DNA from: Planctomycetales bacterium 10988
GTDB lineage: Bacteria; Planctomycetota; Planctomycetia; Pirellulales; Pb10988
Length of the DNA stretch: 64,000 nt
Direction: 5' to 3'
NCBI GenBank assembly: GCA_009664345.1
Contig: CP043547.1
Coordinates: forward strand, 3,748,709 to 3,812,708
Shown: positions 56,832 to 61,484 of the stretch, piece by piece
Layout of the letters: every line of letters starts with the position of its first letter
How positions within the stretch are numbered: the first letter of the stretch is position 1
The notes under the pieces: model-generated
What the model was told of the DNA's origin: nothing
Databases searched by the model: none
What the model saw: only the letters and a program-made list of their open reading frames with translations
Made by a program: the position numbers and the translations under genes

Positions 56832-57117
56832 GAGCCCGTGATCAGAACCCTTCGAAATCAGGTAAATACCGGGAAGAGATGACACCCAATTTACTTTTGA
56901 CCACAAACTCTAAGAGAGGTTCAACTTACTTGATTGATCGCCTTGAGATGATCCCCTCTTCTTCAAAGCAGAATACGATGCGAAATGGGCCTTTGGTAGC
57001 TCGATGAATGTCCCTGCGGACTTCAATCCTAACGAGGTCGAACAAATTGAAACACGTGGATCAAAGAGGTTGAACGCTTTTCCTCCCTATCTCTTCTGAT
57101 GTGAAACTGAGCCTGTT

Positions 57118-58632: not shown

Positions 58633-60603
58633 ATGTCGACGACGATCCCGCCGGAAGAAAAATCGGTCTCCCAAACGGCTTTGCAAGGGATTCGCGTGTT
58701 GGGATTCGAAAGCCGCCGCTGCGAAGATATGACGCGAATGCTCCAGCGGGCCGGGGCGGAAACCTTTGTGAGTCCGTCGATGCAAGAAGTCGCCCTCGAC
58801 GAAGACCAAGAGGCAGTCAACTTCGCCGAACAGGTGATCGCCGGGAAGTTTGATGTGGTGGTCTTTCTAACAGGCGTCGGCATTCGCCACTGGATGCAGG
58901 CGACCGCGGAAACGATTGAACAGGCTGAGCTTCTCGAAGCCCTTCAGAAAACAACGATCGTCGCCCGCGGACCGAAGCCGGTTTCGGCCTTGCGAGAGTT
59001 GAAGATTCGCCCCGATTACCGCATTCCCGAACCGAATACCTGGCGGGAGATTGTCGATACCCTTTCGAAGGAAATTCCGCTCGCCAACAAGCGTGTCGCG
59101 GTGCAGGAATACGGGCGTTCGAATCCTAATCTCTTGGCCGGGCTGGAAGCGTTGGGGGCTTCGGTGCAAAGTTTCCGCGTCTATCGCTGGGAACTTCCCG
59201 ATGATTTGGGACCGCTCGAAGCGAATCTTCAACGGATCGCCCGGCAAGAAGCGGACGTTCTGCTCTTTACCTCCAGCCCGCAAGTCGTTCATTTCTTGCA
59301 AGTCGCACAGCGGATGGGGATCGAAAGCGAAGTCCGTCAAGGTCTGGAAAACGCCGTGGTCTTGTCGATCGGGCCGACGACGACCGAGCGTCTACACGAA
59401 TTGAAATTGCCGATGGACGGCGAACCGGAACACCCGAAGATGGGCTACTTGGTGAATCTTGCGATCGAGGCAGGGCCGGACATGGTACAGCGAAAGCGAG
59501 CCGGACAGCCAACGATTATTGCTAAGTCATCGCCGGTGGAAGTGCCGTCTGGCGAACCTTCGGATGCACTGCAAGATAGCCTTTTTATGAAAGCCTGTCG
59601 CTTGGAGCCAACGCCACGTCCGCCGATTTGGCTGATGCGGCAGGCCGGTCGCTACATGAAAGAATACCGAGCAGTGAGAGAGGGGCTGACCTTCTTGGAA
59701 CTCTGTAAAAACCCTGATCTTTGCACCGAAGTGATGCTGACCGCGGTGGACCGGCTGGGCGTCGATGCGGCGATTCTCTTTGCCGATCTCTTGCCGATTC
59801 TCGAAGCGATGGGCTTCGATCTTGAATACGTCAAAGGGGACGGTCCGGTCATTCATAATCCTTTGCGGAAAGTGGAAGATTTGAGCCGCGTGCAAGAATT
59901 AGAAGACGCCGACTCGCAAGACTTCGTGCTAGAAACCGTTCGCAAAACCAGAGCGGGTCTGCCGTCAGACATCCCTTTGATTGGGTTTGCCGGGGCTCCA
60001 TTTACTTTGGCCAGCTATGCCATCGAAGGAGGCGGCAGCCGGAATTACCTCAATACCAAGCGTTTCATGTTTCAAAACGAATCGGCTTGGCATGACTTGC
60101 TCGGTCGGCTGGCTCGCAGTGTGGCGATTTACCTCAATGCTCAAATCGAGGCTGGGGCTCAGGCCGTTCAGCTGTTCGATAGTTGGGTAGGATGTCTCAA
60201 CATTGACGATTATCGAAGGTACGTCTTGCCGCATACCCGCAGTGTCATTCAAGCGATTACGCCGGGCACGCCGGTGATTCACTTCGGGGCCGGCAATCCC
60301 ACCTTGTTGCCTGCCTTGCGAGAAGCCGGTGGTGATGTGTTGGGCATTGATTGGCGGACGCGATTGGAGGAAGCTTGGAAGCTCGTCGGTTACGATCGTG
60401 CCGTGCAAGGAAATCTCGATCCGCTTTCGCTGCTGGCTCCGATGGAGGTGATCTTGCAACGAACGGATGACCTTCTCAAGCAAGCCGCTGGGAGACCGGG
60501 GCATATTTTCAACTTGGGACACGGGATCGTTCCACAAACCCCGGTCGAGCATGTGATCGAACTGGTATCGTATATTAAAGGCATTTCCACAGAATCTTCA
60601 TAA
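58633..60603 (+). CDS. hemDE: Fused uroporphyrinogen-III synthase / uroporphyrinogen decarboxylase
   Basis: A 656-residue fusion carrying two consecutive heme-pathway steps. Residues ~15-280 are HemD-like (I-R-V-L-G-F-E-S-R-R, F-L-T-G-V-G-I-R, L-L-F-T-S-S-P-Q-V-V-H-F-L), closing hydroxymethylbilane to uroporphyrinogen III. A short linker to ~314 leads to HemE (~317-652): W-L-M-R-Q-A-G-R-Y-M-K-E-Y-R, the I-L-F-A-D-L-L motif with its catalytic Asp, G-F-A-G-A-P-F-T-L-A-S-Y, and N-L-G-H-G-I near the end. AGGTGAG precedes the ATG. No stop or frameshift lies between the halves. Confidence 0.93.
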   Translation: MSTTIPPEEKSVSQTALQGIRVLGFESRRCEDMTRMLQRAGAETFVSPSMQEVALDEDQEAVNFAEQVIAGKFDVVVFLTGVGIRHWMQATAETIEQAELLEALQKTTIVARGPKPVSALRELKIRPDYRIPEPNTWREIVDTLSKEIPLANKRVAVQEYGRSNPNLLAGLEALGASVQSFRVYRWELPDDLGPLEANLQRIARQEADVLLFTSSPQVVHFLQVAQRMGIESEVRQGLENAVVLSIGPTTTERLHELKLPMDGEPEHPKMGYLVNLAIEAGPDMVQRKRAGQPTIIAKSSPVEVPSGEPSDALQDSLFMKACRLEPTPRPPIWLMRQAGRYMKEYRAVREGLTFLELCKNPDLCTEVMLTAVDRLGVDAAILFADLLPILEAMGFDLEYVKGDGPVIHNPLRKVEDLSRVQELEDADSQDFVLETVRKTRAGLPSDIPLIGFAGAPFTLASYAIEGGGSRNYLNTKRFMFQNESAWHDLLGRLARSVAIYLNAQIEAGAQAVQLFDSWVGCLNIDDYRRYVLPHTRSVIQAITPGTPVIHFGAGNPTLLPALREAGGDVLGIDWRTRLEEAWKLVGYDRAVQGNLDPLSLLAPMEVILQRTDDLLKQAAGRPGHIFNLGHGIVPQTPVEHVIELVSYIKGISTESS

Positions 60604-60623: not shown

Positions 60624-60670
60624 GAAAAAACTGAACGCATGACAAAAACCAGGTAATGCCATGCGTTCAG
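60624..60670 (-). terminator. Intrinsic terminator on the minus strand
   Basis: Perfect 11-bp arms (60631-60641 with 60660-60670), followed on the minus strand by TTTTTTCTTG. It ends transcription coming from the Cys-rich gene, just beyond the hemD-hemE stop. Confidence 0.85.
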
Positions 60671-60688
60671 AGGTTCGGACTTTTCGAA

Positions 60689-60773
60689 GCTCGGACAAGT
60701 CCTTCTGAATCGAAGCCAAACACTTCACTGGAGAGTGATGGCATTTCTCGAATCAGTTCAGTTTTGTCAGAGC
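60689..60773 (-). repeat. Structured ~85-nt repeat, copy B
   Basis: Bounded by GCTCGGACAAG and TTTGTCAGAGC, imperfect inverted ends. Similar over its whole length to 61367-61449. It lies between the stop of the Cys-rich gene and the terminator at 60624-60670. Confidence 0.75.
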
Positions 60774-60838
60774 TTTTTAGGTTACTATTGGATGATTGAA
60801 AGGAAATCGCCCATCAAAGAAAGTAGCGGGGATTTAGC

Positions 60839-61342
60839 TTACCGAGCAACGGGGGGGAAAGGAATTGCACGACGAGCCGAAACCGGGTGGACCGGAGTAG
60901 GAGGCATCGGAGGAACCGAGTTCATCTCAGCTTCCGTCGCTGGATTCACGGGTTGCTCCGCATATCCCTCACCACATCCGTAGTTGCAAGGACCGACACC
61001 GCAGGTCCCACAGCTTTCCACGACTTCCCATTTACATTCGCACTTGGTTCCGCATTCGTATTCCTTCTTTTCGAAGGTTTTGACGGTTTTCACGGTGCCA
61101 CAACCAACTTCGCAGCACTTCATCCACGGAAAGCGAATGGCTGGGATGCAAATATCCTTGCATTTCACTTCGTAGCAATGCTTTTCGATGGGCACACGTT
61201 CCATGGTGACCTTACAGGTCTTTTTGACGCAGGTATCGCAATCATCTTTGCAGCAACCATAGTTCGGAGAATGAACTTCAGCGATGGCCATCGATCCAAT
61301 CGAAAGCAACGCCACTGCGAAGAAGAAAAGTTTGGACTTCAT
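60839..61342 (-). CDS. Secreted Cys-rich protein
   Basis: About 167 residues from the ATG at 61342, chosen because AAGGAAAC precedes it and a signal peptide begins there (hydrophobic core ~4-18, cleavage near S-M-A-I-A-E). The mature part has about twenty Cys in C-C, C-x-x-C and C-x-C arrangements between residues ~28 and ~125, including K-K-T-C-K-V and C-K-D-I-C-I-P. The last 40 residues are Pro-rich. Similar proteins occur in planctomycete envelopes, where disulfide-linked Cys-rich proteins have been reported; no enzymatic function is suggested. Flanked by two copies of a structured repeat. Confidence 0.75.
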   Translation of the reverse strand: MKSKLFFFAVALLSIGSMAIAEVHSPNYGCCKDDCDTCVKKTCKVTMERVPIEKHCYEVKCKDICIPAIRFPWMKCCEVGCGTVKTVKTFEKKEYECGTKCECKWEVVESCGTCGVGPCNYGCGEGYAEQPVNPATEAEMNSVPPMPPTPVHPVSARRAIPFPPVAR

Positions 61343-61366
61343 TTTCTTAGTTTCCTTAACTTTGTG

Positions 61367-61449
61367 GCTCGGACAAATCTTCATTCATTGAAGCCAATGC
61401 ACTCGCATTCGAGTGGATAAGTCGTTCTCAATTCAGTTTTTGTCAGAGC
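61367..61449 (-). repeat. Structured ~83-nt repeat, copy A
   Basis: Inverted ends GCTCGGACAAA/TTTGTCAGAGC (10 of 11 match) and an internal CACTCG-CATT-CGAGTG hairpin. It lies in the leader of the Cys-rich gene, 25 nt upstream of its start codon. Confidence 0.75.
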
Positions 61450-61484
61450 TTCTTAAAAATTGATGTTTTTGTCGAAGGCTAGCA

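What the first reader, a model, noticed from the sequence alone, without database searches (positions are those of the whole stretch)
60689..61449. Structured ~85-nt repeat flanking a secreted Cys-rich protein gene
Two copies (61367-61449 and 60689-60773) in the same orientation lie just before and just after the gene. Each has 11-nt inverted ends (GCTCgGACAAA / TTTGTCaGAGC) and an internal hairpin; the internal sequence varies more than the ends. The second copy is followed by a perfect terminator on the same strand, so it could be a small RNA or a 3' UTR element related to the gene's own leader. A mobile miniature element is the alternative.
Basis: seen in the sequence. Interest (0 to 1): 0.65.

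Follow-up and report, generated by a model that had tools for sequence, protein, structure and literature searches.

The report
Dispersed miniature transposon (IS5-type MITE)
The two hairpin-like repeats beside the cysteine-rich protein gene are two of about 80 decayed copies of a small non-coding mobile element scattered between genes of this bacterium, so they are ordinary genomic passengers and not an RNA that belongs to the gene.

Summary
In detail: two ~82-85-nt imperfect palindromes in one orientation flank the Cys-rich gene. The genome holds about 80 copies of this repeat (family A), mostly intergenic, placed by gene orientation as neutral insertion would place them, from near-intact to truncated. 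The two copies here are no more alike (67%) than random pairs (mean 65%). The inner helix shows no compensatory change; only the inverted ends are well kept. Homologues of the gene occur in genomes where no family-A copy was found. The ends, read as GAAGCTCTGACAAAACTGAT / GTGGCTCGGACAAAACC next to TWA, resemble those of an ~890-bp IS5-type insertion sequence in the same genome (GARCCTGTGGTCAAAACTGAT). A second repeat family (B, at least 150 copies) has similar ends, clear 3-bp TWA target duplications, and abuts A copies sharing one TWA. In another genome of the order, A-type ends bound a 458-bp remnant of an IS5-type transposase gene. Best reading: an old, probably inactive IS5/IS1031-type MITE family. 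New member of a known kind; low interest.

The parts
61364..61452 (-). Family-A miniature element, copy 1 (core 61367-61449 plus GAA / CAC at the ends), in the 5' region of the Cys-rich gene
   Evidence: 91.5 bits, full-length match to model R1; 76% mean identity of copies to consensus
61453..61455 (-). TAA flanking copy 1 (presumed target-site half; other side AAA at 61361-61363)
   Evidence: read; family-wide flank statistics (weak)
60686..60776 (-). Family-A miniature element, copy 2 (core 60689-60773), between the stop codon of the gene and its terminator-like hairpin
   Evidence: 70.8 bits, full-length match to model R1
60777..60779 (-). TAA flanking copy 2 (other side GAA at 60683-60685)
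   Evidence: read
60839..61342 (-). Gene of a 167-aa secreted Cys-rich protein that happens to lie between the two copies
   Evidence: ORF; no Pfam or NCBIfam match; homologues in 7 other genomes of the order
60631..60670 (-). Terminator-like hairpin with T-run after copy 2; not part of the repeat family
   Evidence: inverted repeat I1, 14 nt, 93%, T-run read
56832..56910 (+). Copy of the sister family B with TAA on both sides
   Evidence: (as G000:C1:3805535-3805625)

Best explanation
Both repeats are copies of one non-coding miniature inverted-repeat transposable element (family A, about 82 nt plus 3 nt at each end). Shown: it is dispersed in about 80 copies, has conserved terminal inverted repeats of about 16 nt next to TWA, codes for nothing, and its interior decays without compensation. 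Inferred: copies were moved in trans by an IS5-family (IS1031-like) transposase that recognised the ends, cut into YTWAG-like sites and duplicated TWA; the palindrome comes from the element, not from selection for an RNA. The family now looks inactive in this genome: no copy pair is near identical and no complete IS with the A-type ends was found. The position around the Cys-rich gene is coincidence: two independent insertions in neighbouring intergenic gaps.
For: 18 exact-end copies with 0 in the reversed-pattern control; about 80 copies by covariance model, including truncated ones and one with an inner insert. Gene context of intergenic copies: divergent 24, convergent 7, tandem 33 against 40 / 9.5 / 50.5% of intergenic space. 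No excess of compensatory pairs in the mid and inner helix. The two window copies are 67% identical, against 65% for all pairs. End similarity of A-left to the resident IS5-type element: 17 of 21 aligned columns, score reached by none of 2000 shuffles; that IS has DUF4096 and DDE_Tnp_1 reading frames and TWA flanks. Family B has the same architecture, 26 of 49 copies with identical 3-bp flanks against 12.3 expected. B and A abut with a single shared TWA. In genome G189, A-type ends enclose a 458-bp remnant matching IS5 transposase NF033580 (E 3e-4) and DDE_Tnp_1 (E 0.009), beside tens of short elements with the same ends. A-flank W/W agreement p 3e-4 for the best 45 copies.
Against: Exact 3-bp duplications in A itself are only slightly more frequent than by chance (12 of 45, 8.0 expected, p 0.055; 14 of 81, 11.5 expected), and 19 of 72 copies have G where T is expected on the right side. 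No complete autonomous element with A-type ends was found in this genome (25 one-mismatch places were not listed). No empty site could be shown: no near relative is held.
Confidence: 0.92

Rival explanations
1. A structured RNA (leader of the gene plus a related sRNA or 3' UTR element) with a function tied to the Cys-rich gene.
For: Same orientation as the gene; one copy close upstream of the start codon, one before a terminator-like hairpin; both fold better than shuffles.
Against: About 80 copies beside unrelated genes; no covariation; no Rfam family; homologues of the gene occur in genomes without the repeat. Folding well is expected of any palindromic element.
Confidence: 0.03
2. A REP-type repeat moved by a REP-associated tyrosine transposase (RAYT) or an IS200/IS605 element.
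For: Many intergenic palindromic copies.
Against: No Y1_Tnp (PF01797) in the genome, while the control genomes ring; duplicated TWA in the sister family points to a DDE transposase.
Confidence: 0.02
3. A functional protein-binding site family (nucleoid or recombination sites) whose ends are under selection today.
For: Ends are better kept than the interior (87% versus 69%).
Against: Many copies have damaged or missing ends; ends are also what the search model weighs most and what transposition preserves; the same ends flank a transposase remnant in G189.
Confidence: 0.03

Closest known systems
MITEs derived from IS5-family insertion sequences, IS1031-like subgroup
   Same: Terminal inverted repeats beginning with G, 3-bp TNA-type target, no coding capacity, ends like those of a resident IS; ISLrh of the IS1031 subgroup has ends GAACCTGTCTAGTATCT, two overlapping ORFs and a TNA target with 3-bp repeat (PMC12016507)
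   Different: No described MITE with these ends was found; no complete partner IS with the A-type ends in this genome
Repeat family B of the same genome (this work)
   Same: About 80-nt palindrome, TWA flanks, same end architecture, often abutting A
   Different: Different end sequence (GAGCCAGTGGTCAAAAC), more copies (at least 150), clear TWA duplications
Other prokaryotic MITE-like repeats such as ERIC, RUP, BOX, Correia (general knowledge; MITE review PMC10969869)
   Same: Short intergenic palindromes in tens to hundreds of copies whose transcripts fold
   Different: Unrelated ends and hosts; comparison by sequence not made here
REP / RAYT system
   Same: High-copy intergenic palindromes
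   Different: No Y1 transposase in the genome

Membership tests
MITE | Short, non-coding, dispersed in many copies | tested here: met
   About 80 copies of ~82-88 nt
MITE | Terminal inverted repeats | tested here: met
   About 16 nt, best conserved part
MITE | Target-site duplication | tested here: inconclusive
   Family A: single-position agreement p 3e-4, 3-bp identity p 0.055 to 0.22. Family B: met, 26 of 49 versus 12.3 expected
MITE | Ends shared with an autonomous element | tested here: met
   Similar, not identical, to the resident IS5-type IS; A-type ends on a decayed IS5 transposase remnant in G189
IS5 family / IS1031 subgroup derived | DDE transposase of the IS5 type in the parent element | tested here: met
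   Resident IS: DUF4096 and DDE_Tnp_1, NF033580 below its cut-off because the two frames were scanned apart; G189 remnant NF033580 E 3e-4
IS5 family / IS1031 subgroup derived | 3-bp TNA target and duplication | tested here: met
   Family B 15 TAA/TAA, 8 TTA/TTA against 2 mixed; resident IS 8 of 14 identical; family A weak
Structured RNA family | Helices kept by compensatory change | tested here: not met
   RNAalifold covariation term -0.04 and 0 compensatory pairs
Structured RNA family | Match to a known RNA family | tested here: not met
   No Rfam match in the window
REP / RAYT | Y1_Tnp transposase in the genome | tested here: not met

The most novel reading that the evidence does not exclude
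Single copies have been co-opted: the copy in the Cys-rich gene's leader, or the one before its terminator, now influences translation or mRNA stability of that gene.
Probability: 0.05. Interest if true: 0.4.

Novelty: new member of a known kind. Interest (0 to 1): 0.2.

Why it matters
It removes a candidate RNA element from consideration and explains the repeat. It also shows a bacterial chromosome carrying at least two MITE families (about 80 and at least 150 copies) whose ends can be traced to IS5-type elements with TWA targets, which is useful for annotation and for telling MITE palindromes from real RNAs in this order of bacteria.

Tried and rejected
RNA leader or sRNA: rejected by copy number, lack of covariation and presence of the gene without the repeat elsewhere. 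RAYT/IS200 origin: no Y1 transposase. Gene-specific placement or promoter role: orientation relative to genes fits neutral intergenic placement; tandem copies 22 same versus 11 opposite, p 0.08. Mobile cassette made of the two copies around the gene: the copies are not especially similar, and about 0.7 such close pairs are expected by chance; outer flanks TAA / GAA do not match. Autonomous IS with A-type ends in this genome: none near the DDE_Tnp_1 genes examined. Scan of public genomes for the exact ends: nothing (own or near-identical genomes may be left out there). One paper search on MITEs in Planctomycetes gave nothing on this element.

Full report
Observation. The end pattern occurs twice in the window and in none of 100 shuffles. 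Both copies fold better than shuffles. A hairpin with a T-run follows copy 2.

Copy number. The whole genome (6.65 Mb, one contig) has 18 places with both exact ends and none for the reversed control pattern. A covariance model built from these 18 finds about 80 distinct places; only 150 candidates were scored, so this is a lower bound. Copies range from full length to short deletion forms (L104, L107, the second copy in L049) and one with an inner insert (L101). Mean identity to consensus is 76% and mean pairwise identity 65%.

Structure. RNAalifold keeps only the terminal stem, with a covariation term of -0.04 and no compensatory pair. On 74 near-full-length copies I counted pairs of the consensus hairpin against shuffles of the 3' letters: in the mid and inner helix paired cells, changed-but-paired cells and double changes are at the level expected for independent columns; the outer stem shows a small excess of double changes (9 against 4.2) carried by the most decayed copies. 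So the inner hairpin is a leftover of the founder's palindrome, not a maintained RNA structure.

Context. Of 64 intergenic copies with genes on both sides, 24 lie between divergent, 7 between convergent and 33 between tandem genes. Intergenic space sampled from 464 kb of the same genome is 40% divergent, 9.5% convergent and 50.5% tandem. This is what neutral insertion with loss from coding sequence predicts. My ORF calling is crude (ORFs of 90 aa or more, longest first), so 16 copies that overlap an ORF may partly be miscalls. The two window copies are 67% identical, which 40% of all pairs reach, and about 0.7 pairs this close are expected by chance.

Phylogenetic spread. The exact end pattern is absent from 57 other genomes of the order and from the public genome collection. 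The model finds relatives in only one of 296 other genomes of the order, G189. The Cys-rich protein has homologues in 7 of 57 relatives, in which no family-A element was found, so the repeat is not part of that gene's conserved design.

What it is. Aligning flanks shows that the conserved block extends to YTWAGAA|GCTC on the left and GAGC|CACTWAR on the right. Reading TWA as target, the ends are GAAGCTCTGACAAAACTGAT and GTGGCTCGGACAAAACC. The middle base of the two TWA agrees within copies (23 A/A, 7 T/T, 7 discordant, p 3e-4 in the best 45 copies), but full 3-bp identity is only slightly above chance, as expected of old copies or of a partly wrong boundary; I count this as weak.

A second repeat family explains it better. 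Flank comparison revealed family B, about 80 nt, ends GAGCCAGTGGTCAAAAC / GAGTTTGTGGTCAAAAG, at least 150 copies. Of 49 readable copies, 26 have identical 3-bp flanks against 12.3 expected; TAA/TAA 15, TTA/TTA 8, mixed 2 (p 4e-5). Several B copies abut A copies with one shared TWA, for example CACAAACTC-TGA-GAAGCTC and GAACTC-TTA-GTGGCTC, which places the A boundary independently.

Resident insertion sequences supply the source. DDE_Tnp_1 hits number 86. One group of about 890 bp has ends GARCCTGTGGTCAAAACTG, TWA flanks, identical in 8 of 14 copies, and two frames with DUF4096 and DDE_Tnp_1, best NCBI model IS5 family. Its right end aligns with A-left in 17 of 21 columns; no shuffle out of 2000 reached that score. 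A published IS1031-subgroup element has ends GAACCTGT..., two ORFs with frameshift and a 3-bp TNA target (PMC12016507).

Direct link. G189 carries tens of short elements with ends GAAGCTCTAACAAAACG / GAGGCTCTAACAAAACG, TWA flanks and a different interior. In the same genome, contig 121 (L269:3029-3486, minus strand) has these ends around a 458-bp segment with a frameshifted IS5 transposase remnant (E 3e-4 and 0.009, so the match is modest). A-type ends therefore belong to IS5-type elements.

Verdict. Family A is an old IS5/IS1031-type MITE family; the arrangement around the Cys-rich gene is accidental. Shown: dispersion, ends, decay, context, relation of ends to IS5-type elements. Inferred: movement in trans by a now missing transposase. 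Not shown: empty sites, present activity, any effect on the gene.

Noticed in passing
window 56832-56910; L066, L055, L052, L051, L107 and others: Second MITE-like repeat family B, at least 150 copies in the genome, with 3-bp TWA duplications, often abutting family A.
   Followed up: yes
L101:1997-2160: A family-A copy carries an inner insert of about 60 nt with ends GGTGGTCAAAA / TTGACCACC that looks like a B-related element nested in it.
   Followed up: partly
L159:2966-3040: Half of a family-A end followed directly by a short B element, apparently another nested insertion.
   Followed up: no
L158:2950-3030: Half of a family-A copy lies directly before an ORF whose start resembles a ClpV/TssH-type protein (judged by eye).
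   Followed up: no
window 58633-60603: One ORF joins uroporphyrinogen-III synthase (HEM4) and uroporphyrinogen decarboxylase (URO-D).
   Followed up: no
L162-L165 and other DDE_Tnp_1 loci: IS-rich genome: 86 DDE_Tnp_1 matches; one group has some 24 matches with the same score, suggesting recent spread.
   Followed up: no
L248-L251, L260-L279 (G189): Another genome of the order has tens of MITEs with A-type ends but a different interior.
   Followed up: partly
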